The notes under the pieces were generated by a model that was not told where the DNA came from, did not search any database, and saw only the letters and a program-made list of their open reading frames with translations. A stretch of DNA of 64,000 nucleotides from Deltaproteobacteria bacterium (GTDB lineage Bacteria > Desulfobacterota > DSM-4660 > Desulfatiglandales > HGW-15). How positions within the stretch are numbered: position 1 is the first letter of the stretch; every line of letters begins with the position of its first letter. Both the position numbers and the translations under genes were made by a program. Location: contig JAFDEF010000016.1 in NCBI GenBank assembly GCA_019310485.1, positions 1 through 64,000 on the forward strand, given 5' to 3'. Positions 135-58,595 of the stretch are shown one piece after another.

Positions 135-1205
135 ATGGAATTTAAAATAGCTGTTTTGGCAGGTGATTACATCGGGCCGGAGGTCATGGCAGAGGCAATC
201 AAGGTTCTGGAGGCCGTGGGAGAGAAGTTCAACCACACGTTTCATTTCAACGAGGCACTTATTGGCGGAGCAGCTTGGGATGAGTACCGGGAGCATCTTC
301 CCAAACAGACCTTGGACATATGCGAGAATTCGGACGCCATTCTACTGGGAGCGGTGGGCGGACCTGTCAGTGAACAACTCAAACCGAAGTGGTTAAATGT
401 CAGCACGAACGCACTGCTTCCTTTGAGGAAGCGGTTTGACCTGTTTGCGAATCTTCGTCCCGCAAAGCTCTTCCCCGCATTGGCCTCTGCATGTCCGTTG
501 AAAAAAGAGATCGCGGAAAGAGGATTTGACATTCTCGTTGTTAGAGAACTCACGGGCGGCATCTATTTTGGGGAACCGCGTGGTCGAGACGGTTCAGGTG
601 ATGAGGAGAGAGCAGTTGATACCATGGTTTACTCAAGGAGAGAAATAAAGAGAGTTGCCCACGTTGCCTTCAAAGCTGCGCAGGTAAGGAGAAAGAAAGT
701 TACTTCCATTGATAAAGCCAATGTGCTCACGAGCAGCATCTTGTGGCGCGAGGTGGTGGAAGAAGTGGCAAGGGACTACCCTGACGTCGCTTGTGATTCC
801 ATGTTCGTGGACAATGCGACGATGCAGTTGGTGAGAGACCCGGCCCAATTCGACGTGATATTGGCTGGCAACATGTTTGGTGACATTATTTCTGACGAAG
901 CAGTGGGCATTACTGGAAGTCTTGGTATGGGTGCGAGTGCCAGTCTTGGGGAAGGCACCTTTGGACTTTATGAACCAAGCGGCGGCAGTGCTCCGGACAT
1001 TGCAGGCAAGGGTATAGCGAATCCCTTAGCCCAGATCCTGAGTGGAGGCATGATGTTGAAATACTCTTTGAGTATGGAAAAAGAAAGTAACGCCATAGAA
1101 AAGGCTGTGGAAAAGGTGCTTAACGGAGGAAAAGTCAGAACCCCAGATATTGGGGGGAGTAGCACAACTCGTGAAGTCGGTGATGCAATCGTTGAAGCCC
1201 TGTGA
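135..1205 (+). CDS. leuB: 3-isopropylmalate dehydrogenase (LeuB)
   Basis: 356 aa, the usual LeuB length. LeuB oxidises and decarboxylates 3-isopropylmalate to 4-methyl-2-oxopentanoate with NAD in leucine synthesis, in the cytosol. Visible family motifs are the substrate-binding [10 protein letters not shown] and [14 protein letters not shown], the catalytic-Lys block [10 protein letters not shown], the metal-binding Asp block [11 protein letters not shown], and [14 protein letters not shown] near the C-terminus. The ATG follows AAGGAGG at a good distance. It is the first gene in view of a same-strand series running to iorB. No leuA is in the window. Related dehydrogenases act on other 2-hydroxy acids such as malate derivatives, so the substrate is assigned from similarity only. 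Confidence 0.93.
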
Positions 1206-1392
1206 ATAGGCTTCGAAGGGCAATAAAGAGGAAAAGAGCGGTATAGGGTGTGACCGGGATACTTGGGCTCATTTGAGAGTATTTTAACAAAAAGCAGAAT
1301 TATCACTCGTGATGATTCTTCAAGGGGTTCCATTCCATACAGAAAGGCGCCTATAGCCGCTTTTCCTATGCGAGAAACAAGGAGACCTTCTT

Positions 1393-2664
1393 ATGGGCAT
1401 GACCATTACGGAAAAAATACTGGCTAGGGGAGCTGGGTTGAAAGAGGTTGAGCCGGGGCAGTTGATCAATGCCAAGCTGGATCTGATCATGGGAAATGAC
1501 ATCACCACGGCATTGGCGGCTGAGGAACTTGAGAAAATTGGGATCAAGAAAGTCTTCAATAAAGACAGGGTAGTTGTTGTGCTGGACCACTTCACCCCAA
1601 ATAAAGACGTTGATTCCGCGGAGCAGTGTAAAATTGTCCGGCAATTTGCTCGGGAACAGGGGCTGTCCGAATTCTATGAAGCCGGCAATGTGGGAATAGA
1701 GCATCTTGTGCTTCTTGAGAATGGCATTGTCGTGCCGGGGGACATCGTGGTGGGCGGGGACAGCCATACCTGTATGTACGGCGCCATTGGCGCTTTTTCC
1801 ACGGGCGTGGGGAGCACGGACATGGCTGCTGCAATGATTACAGGGGAGCTTTGGTTCAAGGTTCCTGAGACTATGAAGTTTGTGTACACAGGAAAGCTTC
1901 AACCATGGGTAGGAGGGAAGGACCTCATCTTGTATACGATAGGCCAAATAGGCGTGGATGGCGCACTGTATATGGCTATGGAATTCACAGGAGATACCAT
2001 AGATTCGCTTCCCATGCAGGGGAGGTTCAGTATGGCGAACATGGCCATCGAGGCGGGCGCAAAGAGCGGAATATTTGCTCCTGATAAGACGACCGAACAG
2101 TATGTGAAAGGGAGAGCGAAGCGAAAATACGAGTTTTATGCAAGCGATGCCGATGCGCAGTACAAGGAGGTGGTTGAAATTGATGTATGCGGAATTGAGC
2201 CCCAGGTGGCCTTTCCGTCACTTCCGAGCAACACCCGAAACATTAGCGAAGTGGGAGATGTGCCCATTGACCAATGTGCCATAGGCTTTTGCACGAATGG
2301 GACTATTGAAGACTTGAGGGAAGCAGCCAGCGTTCTGAAAGGGCGACGGGTCCATTCGAATGTGAGATTACTCATATTTCCAGGCACCCAGGAAATATAC
2401 CGCCAGGCGATGAAGGAAGGGTTGCTGGAAGTCTTTCTGGATTCGGGAGGAGTCATCAGTTGCCCCACATGCGGACCCTGCTTAGGCGGGCACATGGGTC
2501 TCCTTGCAAAAGGGGAAAGAGCGATTGCAACTTCAAACAGGAATTTCGTGGGAAGAATGGGGCACCCGGAGAGCGAGGTGTATCTCTCTAATCCAGCCAT
2601 TGCAGCAGCTTCAGCGGTTCTGGGCAGAATAGGAAGTCCTGTGGAATTGGGTTTGAAAGCGTAA
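1393..2664 (+). CDS. leuC: 3-isopropylmalate dehydratase large subunit-like (LeuC, aconitase family)
   Basis: 423 aa, the short archaeal/deltaproteobacterial class, against about 466 aa in enterobacteria. With LeuD it isomerises 2- to 3-isopropylmalate using a [4Fe-4S] cluster. The three cluster cysteines are visible: one in GFCTNGT (residues about 298-304) and two in CPTCGPCLGGH (about 358-368). GGDSHTCMYGA and TSNRNFVGRMG are further family blocks. Odd: most relatives read GSCTNGR where this protein reads GFCTNGT, changing two residues beside a cluster ligand. That may mean a related substrate (citramalate, homoaconitate or dimethylmaleate type). The gene is 187 bp after leuB and 21 bp before leuD. 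Confidence 0.85.
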   Translation: MGMTITEKILARGAGLKEVEPGQLINAKLDLIMGNDITTALAAEELEKIGIKKVFNKDRVVVVLDHFTPNKDVDSAEQCKIVRQFAREQGLSEFYEAGNVGIEHLVLLENGIVVPGDIVVGGDSHTCMYGAIGAFSTGVGSTDMAAAMITGELWFKVPETMKFVYTGKLQPWVGGKDLILYTIGQIGVDGALYMAMEFTGDTIDSLPMQGRFSMANMAIEAGAKSGIFAPDKTTEQYVKGRAKRKYEFYASDADAQYKEVVEIDVCGIEPQVAFPSLPSNTRNISEVGDVPIDQCAIGFCTNGTIEDLREAASVLKGRRVHSNVRLLIFPGTQEIYRQAMKEGLLEVFLDSGGVISCPTCGPCLGGHMGLLAKGERAIATSNRNFVGRMGHPESEVYLSNPAIAAASAVLGRIGSPVELGLKA

Positions 2665-2685
2665 GGAAGAGAGGAGGGCCACGGT

Positions 2686-3180
2686 ATGATTTGCAAGGGA
2701 AGAGCATGGAAATTCGGCAAGGATATCAATACGGACGTTATTCTCCCCACGAAGTACATGAACCTCAGGGAGTCCAAGGAACTGGCAAAGCATTGCCTGG
2801 AAAACCAGAACCCTCAATTCGCCAAAGAGGCCAAGGAAGGGGATATCATCGTGGCGGACAAGAATTTCGGATGTGGCTCTTCCCGCGAGCATGCCCCCAT
2901 TTCAATCAAGGGGAAGGGCATAGGGTGTGTGATTGCAAGAAGTTTCGCGAGAATTTTCTACCGAAGTGCGTTTAATATTGGACTTCCAATCCTGGAGAGT
3001 GGGGCAGCTGTTGACGGTATCGAAGATGGGCACGAACTGGAAGTGGATCTTGCAACAGGGGAAATCAAAAACAGAACCACAGGGGAAAGCTTCAACGCAA
3101 CACCAATCCCGGCGTTCATGCAAGAGATCATAGACGATGGGGGATTGATGGGCCATATTAAGAAGAAGCTGAAGACGTGA
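2686..3180 (+). CDS. leuD: 3-isopropylmalate dehydratase small subunit-like (LeuD)
   Basis: 164 aa, matching the short LeuD type that pairs with the short LeuC. This swivelling domain completes the isomerase active site. Motifs: [17 protein letters not shown] at the N-terminus, [12 protein letters not shown] (about residues 62-73), and [16 protein letters not shown]. The substrate-selecting loop after ILPTK reads YMNL, whereas YLNT, YLVM or YLRT types are common in characterised relatives. Together with the LeuC change this leaves the exact substrate open. GAGGAGGG precedes the ATG, and the 21-bp gap to leuC indicates one transcript. Confidence 0.86.
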
Positions 3181-3302
3181 GGGAGAAGAATGCCATTTTC
3201 ATTCTTGAAGTGTGGCTGATTTGATCAATCCTTGCGGGTTTTGATAAGAAGACGGTTTACAAAGATTAAGTAAGCATGAGGCCGCAGAAAGGAGCTCAAG
3301 AA

Positions 3303-4157
3303 ATGAAGAAAAAGCTGACACGATTAGATCTTCAGAAGATGAAGGAAAAAGGTGAAAAAGCAGTATGGATCACAGCGTACGATTACTGGACTGCCCAGTT
3401 TGCGGAGCAGGCAGGGATGGATATGCTTCTGGTCGGAGACTCTTTGGGCATGTGCATTTACGGATATGAGAGCACAATGCCCGTCACCATGGACCAATGT
3501 GTTTATCACTCAGAAGCTGTACGTCGTGGCGCCCCCAACACCTTTGTCATTGGAGACATGCCCTTCCTCTCCTACCAGGTGAGCCCAGAAGAGTCTGTGA
3601 GGAATGCCGGACGTTTCTTCAAAGAAGCCCTGGTGGATGCCATTAAACTGGAAGGTGGACGCTGTGTGTGCCCCCATATCAAGGCCATTTCGGAAAGCGG
3701 CATGCTGGTTATGGCCCACATCGGCCTGACCCCTCAAAGCTCGGGGCAAATAGGTGGTTTCAAAGCCCAGGGGCGTACCGTGGAGACCGCTTTGGAGATG
3801 ATCGAAGATGCCCGAGCTGTTCAAGAGGCTGGTGCATTTGCTCTCCTTGTGGAGGCTGTTCCGCCGGAGGTGTGTAAGATCATCCGTGATGAAATCAAAA
3901 TTCCTGTGTATGGCCTTGGAGCGGGACTTGATGCAGACGGCCAGCTTCTGATCGTGGCTGACATGCTGGGAATCTTCCAAGCCTTCACGCCAAAGTTTGT
4001 CAAACGATACGCCAATGTGGGAGAGGAAATGCTCAAGGGATTCAAGGCGTATGTGGAAGACGTCAAATCCACCCGGTTTCCCGAAGAGAAACACACTTAC
4101 AAAATGATGGATGGAGAACTTGCGAAGCTGAAAACGGCGCTTGAAGGACGGAGTTAG
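3303..4157 (+). CDS. panB: 3-methyl-2-oxobutanoate hydroxymethyltransferase (PanB)
   Basis: 284 aa. PanB adds a hydroxymethyl group from 5,10-methylene-tetrahydrofolate to 2-oxoisovalerate, giving ketopantoate for pantothenate and CoA. The family residues are present: metal-binding Asp in LVGDSLG and GDMPF, the KLEGG block, HIGLTPQS with GGFKAQGR, and the Glu in LVEAVP. The chosen ATG at 3303 sits about 6 nt after AAAGGAGC; an ATG at 3276 would add nine residues but has no ribosome site. PanB and LeuA share 2-oxoisovalerate as precursor, which could explain its place behind leuBCD. panC, panD and panE are not in view. Confidence 0.9.
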   Translation: MKKKLTRLDLQKMKEKGEKAVWITAYDYWTAQFAEQAGMDMLLVGDSLGMCIYGYESTMPVTMDQCVYHSEAVRRGAPNTFVIGDMPFLSYQVSPEESVRNAGRFFKEALVDAIKLEGGRCVCPHIKAISESGMLVMAHIGLTPQSSGQIGGFKAQGRTVETALEMIEDARAVQEAGAFALLVEAVPPEVCKIIRDEIKIPVYGLGAGLDADGQLLIVADMLGIFQAFTPKFVKRYANVGEEMLKGFKAYVEDVKSTRFPEEKHTYKMMDGELAKLKTALEGRS

Positions 4158-4284
4158 ATATACGTCACTGAGGGAGTACCATAGAAATGCGATCTTTTGT
4201 ACTTGTCAAAAGCTTAGGCATTTTCCAAATGAGGATGGTGGCTGTTTTGTATTGCTATCGCAATTAACTCAACAAGGAGGGACG

Positions 4285-6216
4285 ATGAAGAGATTCGACA
4301 CTTTGTTTTCACCCATTACCATCGGGAGCCTTGAACTCAAAAATCGGATTATTATGGCTGCCATGGGTACGAATTTCGGAAAAGAAAGTGGAGAGGTGGG
4401 TGATCGGGCCATCCATTATTATGCCGAGAGGGCCAAGGGGGGTGTTGGGTTGATCATCACAGAATCGAGCCCAACGAGCCAGCTTGGAAGGCACCGGCTG
4501 CGGTGCATCGGTGCATTTGATGATCGGTTCATCCCCGGGCTTCGCCGTTTGGTGGACGCGGTTCATGAGCATGGAGCAGCCATTGCCCTTCAGCTGCTTC
4601 ATGCAGGGAGGAACACAAGCTCCGACATCACAGGAAGTCCAATTCTTGCACCTTCTGCCGTACCAAGATACCCAGGTGCACCTGTTCCAAAGGCAATGAC
4701 TGTAGAGGAAATTAAACAAACCATCTTGGATTTTGGGGAAGAGGCTCGCAGGGCTAAAGAGGCGGGATTCGATGCTGTGGAGATTCACGGTGCTCACGGG
4801 TATCTGATTAATCAATTCCTATCTCCAAGGATAAATAGAAGAAAAGACGAATATGGCGGAAGTGTTAAAAATAGGGGCCGTTTCGCTGTGGAGGTTTTAC
4901 GACAAGTTCGTAGGACCGTGGGAGATACCTATCCGGTTATTTTTAGATTGAGTGCCAAAGAAATGGTGGAAGGGGGCTATGAGTTGAAGGAGGGCCTGAT
5001 ATGGGCCAAAATGGTAGAAGAAGCCGGTGCTGACTTGTTGAATGTTTCAGGCGGAACTGCAGAAGCGTACCACACTGTGGTACAGTTTGTGTCTCCCATG
5101 AATTTCCCGGAAGGCTACCTTGTCCCCCTGGGAGAAGAAACCAAAAAGATGGTGAATATTCCTGTGGCAGTCGCCGATAGACTGAATAACCCTGCCTTTG
5201 CTGAGCAGATACTCAAAGAGGGCAAGGCGGACATGGTGGCTGTGGGAAGGAATTTCCTCGCTGATCCGGACTGGCCAAGGAAAGCGCTGAATGGAGAAGA
5301 AGATCGAATCAGGCCTTGTGTAGCTTGTAACAGATGCCTGTGGTCCCTGCAAAGCATGAATGGCGATGTCATGTGTTTGCAAAATGCCCGCCTGGGCTAT
5401 GAAGCAGAAAGTCAAATTGAACCGGTCAAGGCTGCAAAGAAAATCCTGGTCATCGGAGGAGGCCCTGGCGGAATGGAAGCGGCGAGAGTGGCCCGCAAAA
5501 GGGGGCACCAGGTCGTTTTGTTCGAGAAAAGTGACAAGCTGGGAGGACAGATGCTTCTTGCCGCTGTTCCGCCCTATAAGCAGACGTTGATGAAGGCGGT
5601 AGAATGGCTCATACGGGAACTGGAACATGAGGGCGTAGAAATAAGACTCAATACGGAAGCGACGGCAGCATGTGTCGAGGAGGAAAAACCGGATGGGGTC
5701 ATTGTGGCAACGGGTGCTTCTCCTTATATCCCGGCTGCCTTTTCAGGGCGCAATGCCTTGACGGCATGGGATGTTCTGAAGGGCAGCTCGACTGGGCAGA
5801 AGGTCGTTATTGTCGGCGGTGGGCTCGTTGGGGTGGAAACAGCCGAATTCCTCTGTGAAAGAGGGTGTGAGGTAAAGATCATCGAGATGTTGGATGAACT
5901 GGCGGTGGATATGGAAGGCACCACCAGGCTTCTCCTATTGAAGAGGCTGGCGGATGCAAAGGTGAAGGAAATTCTTTCCAGTGAAGTCGTGGAAGTGAAG
6001 GAAGGAAAGGTCGTGGTAAAAAGGGGCGGAAACAAAGAAATTATAGAAGGCGAGACAATCGTAGTCGCTGTTGGTTCCAAGTCAAACGCGGAACTTCTTG
6101 AAAGCCTAGAGGGCAAATGCCCAGAAGTCGTGGGGATCGGGGATTGTGTTGAACCAAGAAGTGCGATGGAAGCGATCCATGAGGGGTTTTGGGCGGGGCT
6201 CCGAGTATGCTCCTAG
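4285..6216 (+). CDS. Old Yellow Enzyme-type FMN/FAD/4Fe-4S oxidoreductase (2,4-dienoyl-CoA / 2-enoate reductase family)
   Basis: 643 aa with the domain order of 2,4-dienoyl-CoA and 2-enoate reductases. An FMN TIM barrel covers about residues 1-340 and contains EIHGAHGYL and the FLSPRINRRKDEYGG block. A four-Cys [4Fe-4S] site lies at about 345-372 (CVACNRC, then MCLQNA). An FAD/NAD Rossmann half carries GGGPGGMEAARVA and VIVGGGLVGVETAE. Such enzymes reduce activated C=C bonds using NAD(P)H. ATG 4285 follows AAGGAGG by 4 nt; upstream in-frame codons lack a ribosome site. Being inside the leu-pan-ior series suggests an unsaturated acid or thioester intermediate; the substrate cannot be read from sequence. 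Confidence 0.88.
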   Translation: MKRFDTLFSPITIGSLELKNRIIMAAMGTNFGKESGEVGDRAIHYYAERAKGGVGLIITESSPTSQLGRHRLRCIGAFDDRFIPGLRRLVDAVHEHGAAIALQLLHAGRNTSSDITGSPILAPSAVPRYPGAPVPKAMTVEEIKQTILDFGEEARRAKEAGFDAVEIHGAHGYLINQFLSPRINRRKDEYGGSVKNRGRFAVEVLRQVRRTVGDTYPVIFRLSAKEMVEGGYELKEGLIWAKMVEEAGADLLNVSGGTAEAYHTVVQFVSPMNFPEGYLVPLGEETKKMVNIPVAVADRLNNPAFAEQILKEGKADMVAVGRNFLADPDWPRKALNGEEDRIRPCVACNRCLWSLQSMNGDVMCLQNARLGYEAESQIEPVKAAKKILVIGGGPGGMEAARVARKRGHQVVLFEKSDKLGGQMLLAAVPPYKQTLMKAVEWLIRELEHEGVEIRLNTEATAACVEEEKPDGVIVATGASPYIPAAFSGRNALTAWDVLKGSSTGQKVVIVGGGLVGVETAEFLCERGCEVKIIEMLDELAVDMEGTTRLLLLKRLADAKVKEILSSEVVEVKEGKVVVKRGGNKEIIEGETIVVAVGSKSNAELLESLEGKCPEVVGIGDCVEPRSAMEAIHEGFWAGLRVCS

Positions 6217-6238
6217 ATTCCGGAGGGAGGATTGGCTC

Positions 6239-6985
6239 ATGAGTCACATGAAAGTAAGACCTCTTCATGTTGGGAGCGTGAAGCGGAACAAAACCACTTT
6301 TTTGATGGGTGCCCAACCAGAGCCGATTGATTTGCCCATTGTCATGTTTCTCATCCAGACGGAGGACGTCAACGTACTCGTGGACACAGGTACAAGGGAT
6401 CCCAAAGAAACGCCGCCGTTACACAATCCTTACGAACAAAGTGAGGCTCAAAGGGTGGAGAATGTCCTAGGGAAGCTGGGACTCCATCCAAATGACATCA
6501 ATATTGTGATCAACACCCACCTTCATTGGGACCATTGTTCTAATAACCGGCTTTTTGAAAAAGCGATGTTTTATGTTCAAAGGGAAGAACTTCGCTATGC
6601 ATCAGCGCCGCTTCGAGCCCATGCGCACGGTTACGAGGCATTCGAATTGGGGCTGGTGCCCCCGTTTGCCAGCACAAGATTTGAGGTAGTTGAAGGAGAT
6701 CACAAGATCATTGAAGGCGTCTGGGTTCTTTTCACTCCCGGGCACACGCCGGGATCACAAGCCGTCTTGGTGGATTCCGGGGAAAAGTCATGCATCCTGG
6801 CGGGCGATAACATTCCATTATATGAGAACCTCAAAGAGAGAGACATTAGGGCATTTAAGCCCAGCACGCTCTATGTTGATCTTGAAGAATACTATCGAAG
6901 CATTCGAAGACTACTGGAGTTTGATGTGCCGCTAATCCCGGGCCATGAGATCGGCGTCATGAGACAAAAGGATCTCCTGGATTAA
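6239..6985 (+). CDS. Metallo-beta-lactamase-fold hydrolase (lactonase-like)
   Basis: 248 aa. The zinc motif HLHWDHCSNN (HxHxDH type) is at about residues 90-99. The later metal ligands are in GHTPGS, the Asp of AGDNIP, and the His of PGHEIGV near the C-terminus. The arrangement resembles AHL-lactonase-like members of the superfamily, which open lactones or cleave esters and thioesters. GGAGGGAGG precedes the ATG by 8 nt; the gene starts 22 bp after the flavoprotein, so they are cotranscribed. No signal peptide is seen, so it is cytosolic. In this setting a lactone, ester or acyl-CoA hydrolase step is plausible but not shown. Confidence 0.8.
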   Translation: MSHMKVRPLHVGSVKRNKTTFLMGAQPEPIDLPIVMFLIQTEDVNVLVDTGTRDPKETPPLHNPYEQSEAQRVENVLGKLGLHPNDINIVINTHLHWDHCSNNRLFEKAMFYVQREELRYASAPLRAHAHGYEAFELGLVPPFASTRFEVVEGDHKIIEGVWVLFTPGHTPGSQAVLVDSGEKSCILAGDNIPLYENLKERDIRAFKPSTLYVDLEEYYRSIRRLLEFDVPLIPGHEIGVMRQKDLLD

Positions 6986-7097
6986 GCGAAACTAATGCTG
7001 GAGTTCTTTCTCAGTTCTGAATGGGCCTCCTCGGCACCAATCCATCTTCCTCCAACAATATATCTTTCCAATAAGGGGAATCCGAAGAGGTATTCAA

Positions 7098-9011
7098 ATG
7101 GCCGAAATTGATCGCTACCAACCAGGTACGAAGCATTTATTAATGGGCAACGAGGCGATAGCCCGTGGGGCTCTTGAGGCGGGGGTACAATTTGCTGCCG
7201 GCTATCCGGGCACGCCCTCATCGGAGATCATCGCCAGGCTGGCTGATGCGGCTAAGGCGCTGAACGTCCATGTCGAGTGGTCGACCAACGAAAAGGTCGC
7301 CTCCGAAGGAGCGGCTGCAGCTGCCTTTGCAGGACTGCGGAGCTTGGCTGCTATGAAAAATGCAGGGCTGAGTGTAGCCCTGGATTTTCTGACTCATCTC
7401 AGTTACACGGGTCTCGGGAAGCGGGGCGGGGCTATGGTAACCGTGGTCTGCGACGATCCGGAGGGTCACTCCAGCGGGGACGAGACGGACTCCAGGTGGC
7501 TGGCCAAGTTTGCTTCCATCCCGCTTTTGGAGGCAAGCACCGTTGACGAAGCCCGGGACATAATGAAGTGGGCGTTTGATGTGTCAGAAGAGTTCGGATG
7601 CAATGTGATGTTCCGGGGGTATACGCGGCTTTGCCATGCAAGCAGCACTGTAGAAATGAATGATTTGCCGGCCTTCGACCGGGAGGCTCGATCGGACACG
7701 GATCGATCGATCAACCCGTACCTGGCCAAACCTCACCATGGGGCACTCTTGGAGAAATTGAAGGAAATCAAGAAACGCTTTGAGTCCAGTCCCTTCAATC
7801 GGTATGAGGGGCAGGAGGAGCCGGAGCTTCTGATCATCTGCGGAGGGAATGGTTTGCTGTGCGCCTCAGAGGCGGTGGAAATGCTGGGCCTTCAGGACAG
7901 GGTGGGGATTCTAAAGGTGTCGGCCCTGTGGCCTTTCCCCAGTAGCTTGGTCACTGCTTATCTGAAGAAAGCAACCAAGATTTTGGTGGTGGAGGAGGTG
8001 GATCCCTTTATCGAGGGCCACGTAAAGGAGGCCCTGGCGGATGCCGATCTTGAGGGCCGCGAGGTTTACGGAAGGCAGTCGGGGCATATTCCGGACTGCG
8101 GGGAGATCACGCCGGACAGTGCGATACGTGCACTTGCGAAAATTTTCGGGCTGGCCTACCGGGCCAGGGGTGAGAACTATACCCATGCGGTCTCAGAAGC
8201 CGCTGATGATCTGGTGATCAGCAGGGGATTGACCTGGTGTGCCGGATGTCCCCATCGGGCCAGTTTCTGGGCTCTTGAGCGGGCGGTTAAGGCTGACGGC
8301 CGAGATGCCTTTGTGACCGGCGATATAGGCTGTTACACTTTGGATGTCTTTCCTGAAGGCAAAGAGCAGATCAATGTGCTTCATGCCATGGGATCGGGGA
8401 GTGGGCTGGCAGCCGGGTTCGGGCAGCTGCGTCGGTTTAGATATACACAGCCTGTGATCGCGATTTGCGGAGACTCCACATTCTACCATGCATCGATCCC
8501 GGCTTTGATCAATGCTGTGTACAACGGGTCGAACATCGTGCAAATAGTGCTGGACAATGCCGCAACAGCCATGACCGGGTTTCAGTCCCACCCAGGGACT
8601 GGGTTTAATGCAGTTGGGGAGAGTGCACCCAGGATTGATGTGGAGATGTTGTGCCGATCTTTAGGTTGTGAGGTGGCTGTGGGTGATCCATTTGATGTAA
8701 AGGGCACTATCAAGACAATGCGAAAGCTTCTCAAAAGGGAAAATGGGGTCCGAGTTCTCATACTTCGCAGGAGGTGCGAGATTGTGCGGATGCGCAATGA
8801 GAAGGTCAAACCCTATAAGATTGAGATTTTGGAAGAGAAATGCAAAGGCGAAGAATGCAGCGTCTGTTCCAGTGCCTTTAGGTGCCCGGCGCTGTATCAG
8901 GATCCGGACACAGGCAAGACAAGAATCAAGGAGGAGATCTGCTCTGGCTGTGGCGTCTGTGTAGAGATCTGTCCTTTCAAGGCAATCAAGAAGGAGGGGA
9001 GGACGTCATGA
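7098..9011 (+). CDS. iorA: Indolepyruvate:ferredoxin oxidoreductase alpha subunit (IorA)
   Basis: 637 aa, typical IorA. With IorB it oxidatively decarboxylates aryl- or branched 2-oxo acids to acyl-CoA, reducing ferredoxin; it can run in reverse in anaerobes. The N-terminal pyruvate-ferredoxin-type domain has MGNEAIARGALEAG and AAGYPGTPSSEI. The TPP domain has TWCAGCPHR, GDIGCYTL and AICGDSTFYHASI. The C-terminal ferredoxin region contains CKGEECSVC and CSGCGVCVEICPF for two [4Fe-4S] clusters. It overlaps iorB by 4 nt (ATGA), indicating translational coupling. Substrate is inferred from the family; 2-oxoisovalerate would connect it to panB and leu. Confidence 0.93.
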   Translation: MAEIDRYQPGTKHLLMGNEAIARGALEAGVQFAAGYPGTPSSEIIARLADAAKALNVHVEWSTNEKVASEGAAAAAFAGLRSLAAMKNAGLSVALDFLTHLSYTGLGKRGGAMVTVVCDDPEGHSSGDETDSRWLAKFASIPLLEASTVDEARDIMKWAFDVSEEFGCNVMFRGYTRLCHASSTVEMNDLPAFDREARSDTDRSINPYLAKPHHGALLEKLKEIKKRFESSPFNRYEGQEEPELLIICGGNGLLCASEAVEMLGLQDRVGILKVSALWPFPSSLVTAYLKKATKILVVEEVDPFIEGHVKEALADADLEGREVYGRQSGHIPDCGEITPDSAIRALAKIFGLAYRARGENYTHAVSEAADDLVISRGLTWCAGCPHRASFWALERAVKADGRDAFVTGDIGCYTLDVFPEGKEQINVLHAMGSGSGLAAGFGQLRRFRYTQPVIAICGDSTFYHASIPALINAVYNGSNIVQIVLDNAATAMTGFQSHPGTGFNAVGESAPRIDVEMLCRSLGCEVAVGDPFDVKGTIKTMRKLLKRENGVRVLILRRRCEIVRMRNEKVKPYKIEILEEKCKGEECSVCSSAFRCPALYQDPDTGKTRIKEEICSGCGVCVEICPFKAIKKEGRTS

Positions 9012-9619
9012 AGGTCCAGGGAGATCCGATTAATCTAATTATTTGCGGCATTGGCGGGCAGGGCAATATCCTGCTTTCAAGGATTATAGGGAGGATACTG
9101 ACTCGCAAAGGCTATAAGGTGAACATCGGCGAGACCTTCGGTGCCGCTCAAAGAGGAGGGGCTGTTTTTAGCAGCGTGCGGATTTCGAAGGAAAACAACT
9201 ACGGTCCGCTTATACCTGAAGGGCATGGGCACGTGATTTTGAGCCTTGAGCCCTTGGAAGCCTTAAGGAGCCTATGTACATTTGGCAATCCAGAGGTCAT
9301 CACACTGACAAACACGGCGCCTATTTATCCCGTGGGCGTTCTCTCTAAGAGGCTGGAGTATCCGAATCCTGAGAAAACAAAGGAAGCCATTCGAAAGCTC
9401 TCCAAGAAATCGTGGTTCGTTAATGCGACGCAAATGGCGGCGGAACTTGAATCTCCCATTGCAGCGAACATGGTCATGCTCGGCGCCCTCATCGGCATCC
9501 GGACGATGCCTGTCACTGCGGAAGATGCAGAGGCAGAAGTGAGAAGAACTTTCCCTACACCGAGGGTGGATCTCAATCTGGAAGCACTTCACAGAGGAAT
9601 AGAAGCCGTAACACAGTGA
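9008..9619 (+). CDS. iorB: Indolepyruvate:ferredoxin oxidoreductase beta subunit (IorB)
   Basis: 203 aa, normal for IorB (gamma-like domain of 2-oxo acid:ferredoxin oxidoreductases). It opens with NLIICGIGGQGNIL, the glycine-rich nucleotide-fold start, followed by GETFGAAQRGGAVFSSVR, diagnostic for IorB. The ATG overlaps the iorA stop (ATGA), and GGAGGGGAGG lies just before it inside iorA. A start further upstream inside iorA is unnecessary and would lie over its ferredoxin region. The subunit makes the active heterotetramer with IorA. It is the last gene of the run; about 300 bp without a gene follow. Confidence 0.92.
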   Translation: MKVQGDPINLIICGIGGQGNILLSRIIGRILTRKGYKVNIGETFGAAQRGGAVFSSVRISKENNYGPLIPEGHGHVILSLEPLEALRSLCTFGNPEVITLTNTAPIYPVGVLSKRLEYPNPEKTKEAIRKLSKKSWFVNATQMAAELESPIAANMVMLGALIGIRTMPVTAEDAEAEVRRTFPTPRVDLNLEALHRGIEAVTQ

Positions 9620-9937
9620 CTGTGCTTGGTGAGTAGGCTTCTGAACGTATTGGAAAAATAGGAGGGGGTGCGTGTGTCAGCCAGGTTTTCTTGGTTGCGC
9701 AAGGGTTAGCGGGGCGGGCAAGGGTCAACAATGCTAGAGGAATGAGAAAAGCACCCAGCGTAAAATTCACGGTAAATTTGTTCTAATTTTTGGGGCATTG
9801 CGGGTATGGGTGGGCACGGGGCCTATATATTGAAGTGAGTGGGATGTTGAAACTAATGCAGTTCAAAGGGGGCCTTTGCAGGATATCTGAGTCAATCCCA
9901 TTTTTCGTTGAAATTCTTGAAGTGGCCCTGACCCTCA
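9620..9937. other. Gene-free stretch between iorB and IS256 remnant
   Basis: 318 bp without a supported coding region on either strand. No clear terminator with a U-run is seen after iorB. The segment leads into the transposase remnant and is probably decayed island DNA. Confidence 0.5.
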
Positions 9938-10581
9938 TTATGCAGCCTCTCTAGCCAGCTCCAGGTGTTGTCTGATTGCTTCCCTCAGCATGGGCAACCA
10001 CCTGTAGCCTTTTATCTTCCGCAACCTGGGCTCAATCTCAATCAGCGCACTGGCTATCCACCGATGCTTCTGTGAGGAGTTCTTCGAATAATCCACCTTC
10101 GCCGTATATGCCTCTATAAGAGACATCAAGGACTCAAGAGAATTCGTGGTTTTCAGACTTTTCACCATCACCTCGAAAAGCCCCAGCCGATGGAGGGCGA
10201 GTGTCTCTTCCAATCCTTCTTCAAGAGACGATGCAGCCGAGCGGTTTATAAGCCTCAGCTCATTCTTTAGCCTCCTTAACTCAGCCTTGGCCTCCTCATA
10301 TTTCGGCTTCTCATAGGCCCTCTGAAGCTTCCTTCGCCATGTATCTTGCATTCCTTATGAAGGTAGCTTACCACATTCTCCATCTTGTGCCATTGACACC
10401 GCTGAATCAATACCTTGTCCCTGAATACCTTCTTGATCCCTGAATACAACCCCTTGCTGCCATCTATAACACATAACAGCCTCCCTTCCACATTCAGACC
10501 CCCGTCAATCAGAGAGTTGAGAAAATCCTTGATAACTCTCTCATTCTCCGTCCCATTCTGCCCAACAACCTTGCCATCTAT
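9938..10581 (-). pseudogene. IS256-family (Mutator-type) transposase, C-terminal remnant with frameshift
   Basis: Two overlapping minus-strand frames together give about 210 residues of the C-terminal half of an IS256-type transposase. The upstream frame (10581 to about 10276) has LCVIDGSKGLYSGIKKVF and QRCQWHKMENVVSYLHKE. The downstream frame (10351 to 9938) has LQRAYEKPKYEEA, LGLFEVMVKSLKTTNSLESLM and RWLPMLREAIR. The frame changes near 10350. The N-terminal half, including the first catalytic Asp, is missing, and a stop precedes the remaining 5' end at 10582. No terminal inverted repeats are recognisable. The element is dead but marks past transposition next to the tRNA-linked boundary. 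Confidence 0.85.
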
Positions 10582-10605
10582 CTATTATGTCATGGCTATG
10601 AGGGC

Positions 10606-10890
10606 ATGGCCTTAGAAGAACTATGTGGGGAGGCTATGAGAATAAATAAGGACCGACTGAACCCTCTCTATGATCAGTATTCAAACGAAGAAAATCGTCT
10701 TACCCATGCTCTGCTCCACACAATAGGCTCCTCCCAGTGGCTGTTTTCAAGGTTTCTAAGAGAGATAGTTGGAGTGAGTGAATTGGCAACAAGTGCGGTC
10801 GCGCGTTTCAGTGTTGGAGCAAAAGCTCCTGGTCAGCAACCTTGGAATATGTCGGAGCTGGAGAACGCTCCGAATCAGCGGTGTGAGTAG
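10606..10890 (+). pseudogene. Truncated N-terminal fragment of an unrecognised protein
   Basis: A 94-codon frame whose first half (RLNPLYDQYSNEENRLTHAL, then LHTIGSSQWLFSRFLREI) reads like the start of larger proteins that often sit near restriction or defence genes. That resemblance is from memory and not verified. After about residue 50 the reading loses protein-like character and stops at 10890. It begins 25 bp beyond the truncated transposase, so it is probably a gene cut by rearrangement. An ATG at 10636 could be the original start. Confidence 0.35.
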
Positions 10891-10937
10891 AGCGCCAACG
10901 GAACTCACATCCGAGTGAACTCGAATGTTGGCTGATT

Positions 10938-11231
10938 CTATTCCGCATGCAAAGCATCAAGGACCGCGCCAGGATTCCTCGATGCAATTCGTAACAATGC
11001 CTTGGCTGGACCTTCCGGCTTCCTTCTTCCTTGCTCCCAGTTTTGTAATGTACGAACACTAACTCCAATCATTAGTGCGAATTCATTTTGTGACACGTTC
11101 AGTTTCTCTCGCACAGCCTTGATTTCAGGTGGCTTGATTTCAAACAGACGGCTTGGTACCTTGCGGCCCGCTTTGATCTCGCCGGCTTCCTTTATGCTGG
11201 CAACAAGTTTTTCAAATTTCTCTTTTTTCAT
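10938..11231 (-). CDS. higA: HigA-type antitoxin, XRE-family HTH protein
   Basis: 97 aa. The helix-turn-helix is at about residues 40-75 (LNVSQNEFALMIGVSVRTLQ, then NWEQGRRKPEGPA), typical of antitoxins that pair with RelE/HigB toxins and repress their own promoter. The N-terminal helix is charged. It is the second gene of the pair: its ATG overlaps the toxin stop by 4 nt (ATGA), giving the toxin-first order known for higBA. The palindrome in the promoter at 11552-11568 is its likely operator. Family and pair assignment are firm; the exact subfamily name is inferred. Confidence 0.87.
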   Translation of the reverse strand: MKKEKFEKLVASIKEAGEIKAGRKVPSRLFEIKPPEIKAVREKLNVSQNEFALMIGVSVRTLQNWEQGRRKPEGPAKALLRIASRNPGAVLDALHAE

Positions 11232-11542
11232 GATAATAACTCCCTCACCAATTTGCGGAGCAATTTAAGCTGATCCGTCGTCAAATCTTCTTGTTCAGTC
11301 TTCCTGTATGGAAAAAGCATGAAAATAGTGTCAGGAGGATCCCAGTAATAAATGATTCGCAATCCACCTCTTTTTCCGGTACCAGGAAGTTTCCAACGAA
11401 TTTTCCTCAAGCCTCCACTTCCCCTAATCAAGGTTCCGGCATCCGGACGGAGCATCAATGCTGTTTCGAGCATCCGATAATTATCCTCCGATATCAGGCG
11501 TTGAATTTCTTTTGTAAAAATGGAGGTTTCAATGAAAATCAC
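11228..11542 (-). CDS. higB: RelE/HigB-type mRNA-interferase toxin
   Basis: 104 aa from a GTG start. The family pattern IFIETSIFTKEI, GGLRKIRWKLPGTGKRGG, LRIIYYWDPP, then FPYRKTEQEDLT matches RelE/HigB2 toxins that cut mRNA on the ribosome. A longer reading from TTG 11560 is possible in frame, but that codon overlaps the -10 box, so the transcript cannot include it. GTG 11542 coincides with the predicted transcription start, suggesting a leaderless mRNA. It overlaps the antitoxin by 4 nt. Such pairs commonly stabilise genomic islands, which fits the tRNA fragment about 270 bp away. Confidence 0.85.
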   Translation of the reverse strand: MIFIETSIFTKEIQRLISEDNYRMLETALMLRPDAGTLIRGSGGLRKIRWKLPGTGKRGGLRIIYYWDPPDTIFMLFPYRKTEQEDLTTDQLKLLRKLVRELLS

Positions 11543-11548
11543 AGTCGC

Positions 11549-11576
11549 ATTATACGCCAATGGCGTATTTTGTCAA
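11549..11576 (-). promoter_or_regulatory. higBA promoter with overlapping palindromic operator
   Basis: On the minus strand a consensus -35 TTGACA (11576-11571), a 16-bp spacer and a consensus -10 TATAAT (11554-11549) lie just before the toxin. The spacer and -10 are covered by a perfect 8-1-8 palindrome, ATACGCCA and TGGCGTAT (11552-11568), the expected site for HigA autorepression. The start point predicted 7 nt after the -10 falls on the GTG codon. Confidence 0.75.
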
Positions 11577-11698
11577 GGTATTTCGTGAAATAGCAGCCAG
11601 CCATTAAGTGCCAAGGATTTGAGCAATGATACATGACATGTCGATATCAAATCTTGAATCTAATCACAAATTAGTGTTACCAATGTCCTCCCCCAAAC

Positions 11699-11717
11699 AG
11701 GGTGCATATAGGGTGCA
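11699..11717 (+). repeat. Tandem 8-bp direct repeat near att site
   Basis: AGGGTGCA occurs at 11699-11706 and 11710-11717, an 11-bp period (one helical turn), about 100 bp inside the tRNA fragment. Short in-phase repeats at this distance resemble arm-type binding sites of tyrosine integrases or excisionases. The assignment is inference from position and spacing. Confidence 0.35.
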
Positions 11718-11723
11718 AAAGCC

Positions 11724-11752
11724 TTGCACAATTTATCACGATTCGTTATAAT
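11724..11752 (+). promoter_or_regulatory. Sigma-70-type promoter reading toward the tRNA fragment
   Basis: TTGCAC (11724-11729), a 17-bp spacer and a perfect TATAAT (11747-11752). Transcription would run rightward through the tRNA-Asp fragment into the terminator at 11868-11899, so it would make only a short RNA of about 140 nt unless it reads through. It may be an element-end promoter. Confidence 0.4.
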
Positions 11753-11810
11753 TTTATACTCTAAGTGCTTGAAATCCTTGTATGCGTTTGATATTTCTAG
11801 GCAACATGAT

Positions 11811-11858
11811 GGCCTGTCACGCCGGAGGTCGCGAGTTCGAGTCTCGTCGTCCCCGCCA
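11811..11858 (+). mobile_element. Attachment site: 3' half of a tRNA-Asp(GTC) gene, 5' half missing
   Basis: The sequence contains an anticodon loop CTGTCAC (anticodon GTC), an intact T arm (GCGAG, TTCGAGT, CTCGT), the acceptor 3' strand and an encoded CCA ending at 11858. Upstream of the anticodon stem there is no D arm and no matching acceptor 5' strand, and the anticodon stem itself breaks off after four pairs. This is the displaced 3' end left when a tyrosine integrase inserts an element into a tRNA gene and the element restores an intact copy at its other end. The native terminator still follows on the right. The inserted element therefore extends to the left, and its integrase and the intact tRNA-Asp should lie beyond the window start. 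Confidence 0.75.
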
Positions 11859-11867
11859 TTGAAAGCA

Positions 11868-11903
11868 AAAAGCCTGTTGCCGTCCGGTAACAGGCTTTTC
11901 TTT
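11868..11903 (+). terminator. Rho-independent terminator of the former tRNA-Asp gene
   Basis: A 14-bp stem (AAAAGCCTGTTGCC with GGTAACAGGCTTTT, one G-U pair) around the loop GTCC, followed by CTTTC. It lies 10 bp after the tRNA CCA end and is the natural end of the original tRNA transcript. Confidence 0.85.
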
Positions 11904-12040
11904 CAGCTCATGGCCCACACGGAAAGCTTCTTGTTGCGTAAGCAAGAAGGTTTGAGGCGGTTGTGGCGAGGAGCCTTCCAGGAAATTAAAAGTTGGAAGT
12001 GAAGCTGTGGCGTGGAACATGAGAAAGGAACCTAATTGGG

Positions 12041-56424: not shown

Positions 56425-57888
56425 TTACTCCATAACAAAAGATTTGAGTCCTGGGATCTCCTCCTTTAAAAGACACCCAATCTCTTTAGGGATGAAGGAC
56501 TGGCGTGGTCTTCCCAGAATATCCCTTACTTTTTTTGTGGCCCTCCTCCAAGTATCCTCTGCCCCTTCGGCGTACCACTTCTCCCTGCTCTCCCGGTCGC
56601 TAAGCTGTGGTTGATACAATTCGGTTCGCATGTGCCGCCGCGTATGTCGTTCTGATACAAAGTGCCCTCCAGGGCCTACCTTCTTGATAATGTCAAATGC
56701 GAGGGTCTCGTCATTTACCCGAATACCCTCCACCGCCCGCATGACCATGCCTATTATTTCGTTGTCAATGACAAGCTTGTCAAAGGAAGCAGTCATACAG
56801 AATTCAAGAAACCCGGCTGCATCGTGGATAAAATTTCCTCCTGCCAGTGCCACCATCAGGGAGGTTATGGCAGACTCATATCCTGCTTGGGCATCGTTCA
56901 CCTTGGAATCAGACATGCCTGCTGTAGCGTAAATGGGTATCCCGTAAAACTGTGCCATTTGAGCGGAGGCGGCATTCATCACTCCCATCTCAACAGCGCC
57001 TGATAGGTACTTCATATCTCGGAGATCGGTAATTGAAGATATGCACCCGTAAAGGGTTGGTGTGCCTGGATTAACGAGCTGGGCCAACATTATACCGGCT
57101 AAAGAGTCCACATTCTGCACTACAAGATTCCCTGCCAGAGTCATTGGCGCCGTTGCGCCGCACAGAGGTTCTGCAGGCACCACCACCGGGATTCCCCTTC
57201 GCGCAACTTCCATGGTAAGGTGAGCATAGGTTTTGTCCAATTTAAAGGGGCTGATAGGACAGGTTATCATTGAAATAAAAGGGCGTTCTCTCAATTTCTT
57301 GGCTGACCCGGCAATGATCTCTGCCATCTTGATCACATTTCTAACTCCCTCTACCGTGTAAACACCCCCCATCACATGTTTACGGGTGTTATTTAATGCA
57401 GCCCCAAACCGGTTCACATCAACATCTTCCGCGGCGAGATCATGGGGATATACATTGATCATGTAAAAATGAATATTGTCCAGGGCCTCTACAAGGCGGG
57501 CCATGGCTACGATATCTTCAAGCTTGGCCCTTCGTGAACCACGGCTTCCAGGATCCTGGACATTGAGCGCGGTGCCCCCAGTACCGAGGTACACCTTCTC
57601 TCCTCCGATCTCACAGTCCAGCGTGCCGTTTTCTTCACGTCCAGTAAGGCAAACAACGGAAGGGGCCTTATGGACTAGTTCCTCTACCAGCTCTCGAGGA
57701 ATCTTTACGATCGACAGGTTACTATCTACCTTGGCTCCAGCGTTACGAAAGAGATCTAGGGCTTCAGGAAAGTTGACCTGGATCCCGACTTCTTCAAGGA
57801 CCCTGAGGCTTGTTTCATGGATTTTCTGCACGTCTTCATCGCTGATCGGCTTATATCGCCCTCCTTTAAGACCTTTTCTAACCTTCAC
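56425..57888 (-). CDS. Non-pyrrolysine MttB-family quaternary-amine:corrinoid methyltransferase, copy 2
   Basis: 487 aa from GTG 57888 with AAAGGAG 5 nt ahead; the open frame extends to 57960 but then overlaps the preceding gene. MttB-family segments: KPISDEDVQKIHETSLRVLE at the start, VYLGTGGTALNVQDPGS, TRKHVMGGVYTVEGVRNVIK, VVVPAEPLCGATAPMTLAGN and QLVNPGTPTLYGCISSITDL. The frame has no UAG codon where MttB has pyrrolysine. It is 26 bp after the MetH-activation-like gene and 23 bp before the folate methyltransferase gene. The ARR-type tail (PRQSFIPKEIGCLLKEEIPG) is normal. Substrate probably a different amine or the same amine at another step. Confidence 0.88.
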   Translation of the reverse strand: MKVRKGLKGGRYKPISDEDVQKIHETSLRVLEEVGIQVNFPEALDLFRNAGAKVDSNLSIVKIPRELVEELVHKAPSVVCLTGREENGTLDCEIGGEKVYLGTGGTALNVQDPGSRGSRRAKLEDIVAMARLVEALDNIHFYMINVYPHDLAAEDVDVNRFGAALNNTRKHVMGGVYTVEGVRNVIKMAEIIAGSAKKLRERPFISMITCPISPFKLDKTYAHLTMEVARRGIPVVVPAEPLCGATAPMTLAGNLVVQNVDSLAGIMLAQLVNPGTPTLYGCISSITDLRDMKYLSGAVEMGVMNAASAQMAQFYGIPIYATAGMSDSKVNDAQAGYESAITSLMVALAGGNFIHDAAGFLEFCMTASFDKLVIDNEIIGMVMRAVEGIRVNDETLAFDIIKKVGPGGHFVSERHTRRHMRTELYQPQLSDRESREKWYAEGAEDTWRRATKKVRDILGRPRQSFIPKEIGCLLKEEIPGLKSFVME

Positions 57889-57914
57889 TATTCTCCTTTC
57901 AATAGAAATAATTT

Positions 57915-58595
57915 CTAGGTTCTTCTCATAGTACAATCCACCCTCGAGCATTCTAAACAAGGATTATGTTCTGAAAAGTCCAAATGAAACGGGCCTATTC
58001 CAAAAATCCCGGAGATAGATTTACGGGGACTCATGAAGCATGAATCCCTGAGCTGAACCTCCAAATGATTTGAGTGGAAAACGTTAAAAAGTTTCTTTTG
58101 ATCCTCTATAGACCAATCGCAGTACCCCGGACTGAATCGTAACGTGAGTCCTTTGCTGTCCATCTTGGTCCTGGTAATAAATTCGCTATGAAATTTATCT
58201 ACCATATTTTCTACTGCCACAGAACCTATTGCATCGAGAATGTAAGCCTCTGATAAGCGGTTTTCCCGCAAAAGTTTCTCGCTTTTTCTCTCGATACCAT
58301 CACCTATTGTGGCTATAAAACAAACAACTTCCTCACACTCACAGGTGTTCATCACCCTCGCAATCTTTCGACTTTTGAAGGAGATGCCTCCTTCCAGTGT
58401 AAGACAATCCTCTTGTTGGGACTCTAACGTTTTTCTTTGATAATATATGAGGGGCTTGATGAGTTTTGCCGCAATAACCGAAAGCTTCATTACTTTGCTT
58501 TGAACAGAACAAGAAAGCCTGGAAGCCTTCCTTCCTCCCAAACATTTGACCAGTTGACTTTTTTTCAAATCAGGCTTGATTTTAACTTTAGTCAT
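57915..58595 (-). CDS. MetH-activation-domain-like protein
   Basis: 226 aa. The C-terminal two-thirds match the B12-dependent methionine synthase activation domain pattern: GDGIERKSEKLLRENRLSEAY, ILDAIGSVAVENMVDKFHSE and LRFSPGYCDWSIEDQKKLF. The tail has NPCLECSRVDCTMRR, a Cys cluster that might hold a metal or Fe-S site. Related genes often accompany corrinoid methyltransferase clusters; a role in reactivating the corrinoid or binding SAM is inferred. It is the first gene of the operon, with GGAGGGAGG about 12 nt before the ATG. The N-terminus is Lys-rich. Confidence 0.8.
   Translation of the reverse strand: MTKVKIKPDLKKSQLVKCLGGRKASRLSCSVQSKVMKLSVIAAKLIKPLIYYQRKTLESQQEDCLTLEGGISFKSRKIARVMNTCECEEVVCFIATIGDGIERKSEKLLRENRLSEAYILDAIGSVAVENMVDKFHSEFITRTKMDSKGLTLRFSPGYCDWSIEDQKKLFNVFHSNHLEVQLRDSCFMSPRKSISGIFGIGPFHLDFSEHNPCLECSRVDCTMRRT

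What the first reader, a model, noticed from the sequence alone, without database searches (positions are those of the whole stretch)
11811..11858. tRNA-Asp 3' fragment marks the right end of an integrated element
Only the anticodon loop, T arm, acceptor 3' strand and CCA remain, followed by the native terminator. That is the signature of the displaced attR site after tRNA-targeted integration. Because the tRNA reads rightward, the element lies to the left, beyond the window. IS256 debris, a gene fragment and a toxin-antitoxin pair next to it support this.
Basis: partly seen in the sequence, partly recalled or inferred. Interest (0 to 1): 0.7.

Follow-up and report, generated by a model that had tools for sequence, protein, structure and literature searches.

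The report
Right end of a tRNA-inserted element
A 48-base tail of an aspartate tRNA gene, with an enzyme-binding repeat beside it, marks where one end of a mobile DNA element was spliced into a bacterial chromosome; the mechanism is well known, and only the local details are new.

Summary
In detail: window 11811-11858 is the 3' 48 nt of tRNA-Asp(GTC), cut in the anticodon arm and followed by a strong terminator. It is best read as the displaced attR of a tyrosine-integrase element. The strongest evidence is new. The 19-bp motif AGGGTGCATATAGGGTGCA lies 93 bp left of the fragment and occurs three times in this genome. The other two copies flank a sibling element: C23 has tRNA-Arg(ACG) plus an integrase, C22 the displaced tRNA-Arg fragment. 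In 41 genomes, 9 of 9 matches (up to 1 mismatch) lie within about 160 bp of a tRNA gene or tRNA 3' fragment. tRNA-Asp is a hotspot: 6 of 40 relatives carry displaced tRNA-Asp 3' fragments cut in the same arm. Caveats: window base 1 is the contig end; intact tRNA-Asp, tRNA-Val(TAC) and the cognate integrase are absent from this draft genome, so the left end was not seen. The element end is damaged: IS256 remnant, truncated gene, and a toxin-antitoxin pair that looks like an integron cassette. The leuBCD-panB-iorAB block to the left is accessory and may be cargo. New member of a known kind; low to moderate interest.

The parts
11811..11858 (+). Displaced 3' fragment of tRNA-Asp(GTC): part of anticodon arm, T arm, acceptor 3' strand, CCA (attR core)
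   Evidence: 100% over 48 nt to intact tRNA-Asp of relatives; no tRNA called in window
11859..11905 (+). Terminator hairpin after the fragment, host side of attR
   Evidence: z -5.58, 0 of 200 shuffles as good
11699..11717 (+). Arm-type site candidate AGGGTGCATATAGGGTGCA (two GGGTGCA copies, 11-bp period)
   Evidence: 3 exact copies in genome, all at tRNA-integration ends; 0 expected in window; 4 exact matches in 395 genomes
11688..11783 (+). Element arm (P'-arm-like) homologous to the arm at the displaced tRNA-Arg fragment on own contig C22
   Evidence: 73% over 99 aligned columns; 3-way alignment with C22 and G012
11601..11680 (.). 83% similar to the leader upstream of a truncated integron-type integrase on own contig C78
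   Evidence: the C78 gene has Phage_int_SAM_4, 1.3e-30
11228..11560 (-). RelE-like toxin gene
   Evidence: PF06296 1.1e-6
10938..11231 (-). HTH antitoxin gene (NadS / MqsA-like)
   Evidence: NF041265 above cut-off; HTH_3
10862..10935 (.). attC-like site at the downstream end of the toxin-antitoxin pair, decayed
   Evidence: homologous sequence at the same place in copies of G015, G005 and G031; fold only weakly better than shuffles, z -1.47
10801..10865 (+). 65-bp stretch shared with the C22 element end
   Evidence: 77%
10549..10793 (+). 5' fragment of an element gene that is long (419 aa) on C22
   Evidence: 95% over 245 bp
9886..10570 (-). IS256-family remnant, truncated, two frames
   Evidence: 85% to G006 copy; NF033543 4.9e-10; PF00872
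135..9619 (+). Accessory block leuB-leuC-leuD-panB-OYE-MBL-iorA-iorB, possible cargo
   Evidence: Models; the lineage's own leuCD is on C22

Best explanation
The fragment is attR of an integrative element that used tRNA-Asp(GTC) as attB. A tyrosine integrase recombined the element's attP, which carried a copy of the tRNA 3' half, with the chromosomal gene, crossing over in the anticodon loop. The tRNA was rebuilt at the left junction from the element's copy, and the original 3' half with its terminator was pushed to the right junction, at 11811-11905. Sequence left of 11811 is element: first the arm with its integrase-binding repeat (11699-11717), then decayed cargo (integron piece with a toxin-antitoxin cassette, truncated gene, IS256 remnant), probably then the leu/pan/ior block. 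Shown: fragment, arm homology with the sibling element, specificity of the repeat, hotspot in relatives. Inferred: crossover point, integrase binding to the repeat, extent of the element to the left, and that an intact tRNA-Asp lies in an assembly gap.
For: 48-nt exact tRNA-Asp 3' end without a 5' half. The 19-bp repeat has 3 exact copies in the genome, all at tRNA ends. The sibling element shows both ends: C23:1039-1115 tRNA-Arg(ACG) with integrase and repeat, and the displaced tRNA-Arg 3' fragment with repeat at about C22:114970-115120. In 41 genomes 9 of 9 matches lie within about 160 bp of a tRNA gene or tRNA 3' fragment, with 0 matches to the reversed control. Relatives of the C23 integrase, 45-73% identical, sit beside 5 of the 6 matches outside the own genome; the sixth (G012) is beside a displaced tRNA 3' fragment. 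One viral contig (L315) has the repeat on both sides of a tRNA-like 3' fragment, as in an attP. Seven other displaced tRNA-Asp fragments, cut in the anticodon arm, in 6 of 40 relatives.
Against: No intact tRNA-Asp, no 5' half and no integrase adjoining it in the assembly. No integrase in the 11.8 kb left of the fragment (the nine Pfam integrase matches are on other contigs). Genes right of the fragment were not found beside tRNA-Asp in 18 loci of relatives, and no tRNA-Asp was found in 81 loci with relatives of the right-flank genes, many of them cut by contig ends. In one relative (G038) the displaced fragment is 1.6 Mb from the intact gene, so a fragment can lose its partner.
Confidence: 0.93

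Rival explanations
1. The attR is genuine, but the rest of the element was deleted or moved by later events (IS256-linked), so the leu/pan/ior block is ordinary accessory chromosome joined to the remnant, not cargo. (A rival on the element's extent only, not on the attR.)
For: IS256 remnant and truncated gene sit exactly between the block and the element end; precedent of separation in G038.
Against: The block itself looks foreign: window leuC is 55-61% identical to relatives' copies while the C22 copy is 59-73%; no leuCD locus of 13 examined has panB, OYE, MBL or ior genes beside it; GC 0.514 against 0.474.
Confidence: 0.45
2. Plain tRNA pseudogene from local duplication or partial deletion of tRNA-Asp, without an element.
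For: Degenerate tRNA-Asp copies of another shape occur in G012, G039 and G007; no intact partner seen here.
Against: The same arm and repeat as the tRNA-Arg element; breakpoint in the anticodon arm as in 7 fragments of relatives.
Confidence: 0.04
3. Assembly or binning artefact: chimeric join at the tRNA repeat.
For: Draft genome of 103 contigs, 2.14% contamination; tRNA-Asp missing elsewhere.
Against: The flank is the arm expected for an attR and matches own-genome element ends; the fragment is followed by a terminator, as on C22.
Confidence: 0.02
4. Functional half gene of a split tRNA-Asp, joined in trans.
For: No intact tRNA-Asp in the assembly.
Against: No 5' half found; tRNA-Val(TAC), its neighbour in relatives, is missing too, which points to a gap.
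Confidence: 0.01

Closest known systems
tDNA-targeted genomic islands as mapped by Islander (PMC4383910; passages seen)
   Same: Displaced 3' tDNA fragment as endpoint, anticodon-centred subsite A (2083 islands in their table)
   Different: Intact tDNA and integrase filter cannot be satisfied here because the contig ends
Sibling element of this genome in tRNA-Arg(ACG), contigs C23 and C22
   Same: Same 19-bp repeat, related arm, 245-bp 95% shared gene piece, cut in the anticodon arm
   Different: Different tRNA target and different genes near attR; this one holds an integron piece and IS256
Elements beside tRNA-Asp and tRNA-Met (G032), tRNA-Leu(CAG) (G033), tRNA-Arg(ACG) (G037, G031)
   Same: Same repeat type and a related integrase beside the tRNA
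   Different: Targets and repeat letters vary; beside tRNA-Asp in G032 only a 33-residue integrase match was seen

Membership tests
tRNA-targeted integrative element (genomic island) | Displaced 3' tRNA fragment, identical to the tRNA end through CCA | tested here: met
tRNA-targeted integrative element (genomic island) | Intact cognate tRNA upstream in the same orientation | tested here: inconclusive
   contig ends at window base 1; tRNA-Asp absent from the assembly
tRNA-targeted integrative element (genomic island) | Tyrosine integrase within the element | tested here: inconclusive
   none in the 11.8 kb seen; the sibling element has one beside its tRNA
tRNA-targeted integrative element (genomic island) | Element-specific arm sequence beside the fragment | tested here: met
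tRNA-targeted integrative element (genomic island) | Empty site in a relative | tested here: inconclusive
   no syntenic relative found
Integron gene cassette (the toxin-antitoxin pair) | attC site at the gene's downstream end | tested here: inconclusive
   homologous attC-like end in 3 relatives' copies (the attC label is recalled, from no call); weak fold
Integron gene cassette (the toxin-antitoxin pair) | Integron integrase or its leader next to the first cassette | tested here: inconclusive
   leader-like 80 bp at 83%; no integrase gene here

The most novel reading that the evidence does not exclude
A single lineage of integrases keeps its arm-type site (GGGTGCA-N4-GGGTGCA) nearly fixed while its core has been exchanged among at least five tRNA genes (Asp, Arg, Met, Leu and, by my reading of the G012 fragment, Ala), so arm and core specificity evolve separately; and the Asp element here delivered a second, foreign leucine/pantothenate/ior gene block.
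Probability: 0.35. Interest if true: 0.4.

Novelty: new member of a known kind. Interest (0 to 1): 0.27.

Why it matters
The repeat gives a way to find both ends of this element group even in draft genomes where tRNAs are lost in gaps, and it offers a set of related integrases with the same arm site and different tRNA targets for studying how target choice changes. Otherwise it is a well-understood mechanism.

Tried and rejected
Looked for the intact tRNA-Asp or its 5' half in the own genome: by tRNA model, pattern and BLAST with a relative's tRNA-Val/tRNA-Asp pair; none. Looked for synteny of the right flank with tRNA-Asp in relatives and in 80 GTDB loci plus G006; none. Looked for the leu/pan/ior block in relatives; only separate pieces. 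Searched the phylum for the leuB type: 140 of 395 genomes at E <= 1e-90, best 64% outside the own genome, which has a second copy on C10; the four family and twelve order members listed there had no match at that cut-off. Split tRNA idea rejected for lack of a 5' half. Of the five viral contigs with the repeat, 2 of 5 (L316, L318) have an integrase relative and L315 an attP-like arrangement; L314 and L317 showed neither. Paper searches for the repeat letters (10 papers listed, none about arm sites by title) and for arm-type sites (listings and abstract starts only) gave no description of this repeat; that does not show that none is in print.

Full report
Observation. The window starts at base 1 of contig C68 (65,368 bp) of a 103-contig draft genome. 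Bases 11811-11858 are the 3' 48 nt of tRNA-Asp(GTC) with CCA, 100% identical to intact tRNA-Asp genes in several relatives. No tRNA is called in the window, and a strong hairpin follows (z -5.58). The match to the tRNA breaks off in the 5' strand of the anticodon stem (my reading).

The partner is missing from the assembly. The tRNA model gave 43 matches in the own genome. ARAGORN on the loci fetched for them shows no tRNA-Asp and no tRNA-Val(TAC). BLAST with a relative's Val/Asp pair finds only this fragment for Asp. In relatives the two tRNAs are neighbours (17 of 18 tRNA-Asp loci), so one gap explains both losses. This is an inference.

What lies left of the fragment. The best evidence is on own contig C22, where the sequence 11688-11783 recurs at 73%. 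There it is followed by another displaced tRNA 3' end, of tRNA-Arg(ACG). The intact tRNA-Arg(ACG) is on C23:1039-1115 with a converging tyrosine integrase (PF00589 2.2e-22). The integrase reading frame looks truncated at its start. Both C22 and C23 carry AGGGTGCATATAGGGTGCA, as does window 11699-11717, and these are the only three exact copies in the genome. The window and C22 also share 245 bp at 95% and 65 bp at 77%. I read C23 and C22 as attL and attR of a sibling element; the two contigs are not joined in the assembly.

Specificity of the repeat. With up to one mismatch, AGGGTGCANNTAGGGTGCA has 9 matches in 6 of 41 genomes and none for the reversed control. All 9 lie within about 160 bp of a tRNA gene or tRNA 3' fragment: tRNA-Asp and tRNA-Met (G032), tRNA-Leu (G033), tRNA-Arg (G037, G031), C23, C22, the window, and a tRNA 3' fragment in G012. 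A relative of the C23 integrase, 45-73% identical, lies beside the five matches of G032, G033, G037 and G031; the one at G032 tRNA-Asp is a 33-residue piece. Exact matches in 395 genomes of the phylum number 4, in 2 genomes, three of them in this one. In viral contigs the repeat occurs in 5 stretches. In L315 two copies flank a tRNA-like 3' fragment, which is the layout of an attP; in L318 and L316 an integrase relative lies beside it; L314 and L317 show neither. That the repeat is an arm-type integrase site is inferred from this layout.

Hotspot. Seven other displaced tRNA-Asp 3' fragments, with foreign sequence from the anticodon arm on, occur in 6 of 40 relatives: G025, G010, G004, G035, G038 and two in G033. 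This is a lower bound, since the search scored at most 7 candidates a genome. In G025, G004 and G033 the fragment lies downstream of the intact gene on the same strand, 9 to 106 kb away; in G038 it is 1.6 Mb away. The G025 element has a more distant integrase (29%) near its fragment and no such repeat, so different element groups use this tRNA.

The damaged end. The IS256 remnant 9886-10570 abuts the 245-bp gene piece. The toxin-antitoxin pair 10938-11560 has relatives in G015, G002, G005, G009 and, in part, G031; three of those copies (G015, G005, G031) share an attC-like sequence at the same end (the attC label is recalled). On its other side 11601-11680 is 83% identical to the leader of a truncated integron-type integrase on own contig C78. 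So the pair was probably an integron cassette; the attC fold is weak.

Is the leu/pan/ior block cargo? Window leuB, leuC and panB pass their NCBIfam cut-offs and leuD passes a subfamily one. Window leuC is 55-61% identical to copies of relatives, whereas the C22 copy is 59-73%, so C22 holds the lineage's own copy. None of 13 leuCD loci has panB, OYE, MBL or ior genes beside it. GC is 0.514 against 0.474 right of the fragment; other own-genome stretches range from 0.456 to 0.544, so GC alone proves little. The block is accessory. That it belongs to this element is likely but not shown; a rearrangement at the IS256 remnant is the main alternative.

Against the reading. The left end was not seen, no empty site was found, right-flank genes were not beside tRNA-Asp in any of 18 relative loci, and no tRNA-Asp was in 81 loci with right-flank relatives. 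These gaps do not touch the arm evidence.

Known kind. Islander defines islands by an intact tDNA and its displaced fragment and lists an anticodon-centred subsite (PMC4383910, passages seen). This case meets the fragment and arm features; the intact gene and integrase could not be tested.

Noticed in passing
10862-11680: Possible remnant of an integron: attC-like site, toxin-antitoxin cassette and a leader resembling that of a truncated integron integrase on own contig C78.
   Followed up: partly
56817-56916 (-): Rfam PYLIS_3 (mttB pyrrolysine insertion sequence) match, 61.6 bits, inside a 511-aa frame 56425-57960 that holds no in-frame TAG: probably an MttB relative without pyrrolysine.
   Followed up: partly
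135-9619: Second, divergent leuBCD set with panB, an old-yellow-enzyme fusion, a metallo-beta-lactamase-fold gene and iorAB, all on one strand.
   Followed up: partly
L085 (G039) and L153 (G012), downstream of tRNA-Asp: Partial tRNA-Asp copies after the intact gene; in G012 the anticodon arm is replaced by other hairpin letters.
   Followed up: no
L276 (own contig C79): Another tRNA-like 3' fragment (weak tRNA-model match at C79:8611-8674) about 0.75 kb from a tyrosine integrase: probably a further element end, without the GGGTGCA repeat.
   Followed up: no
L043 (own contig C28): tRNA-SeC(TCA) called by ARAGORN: the organism may use selenocysteine.
   Followed up: no
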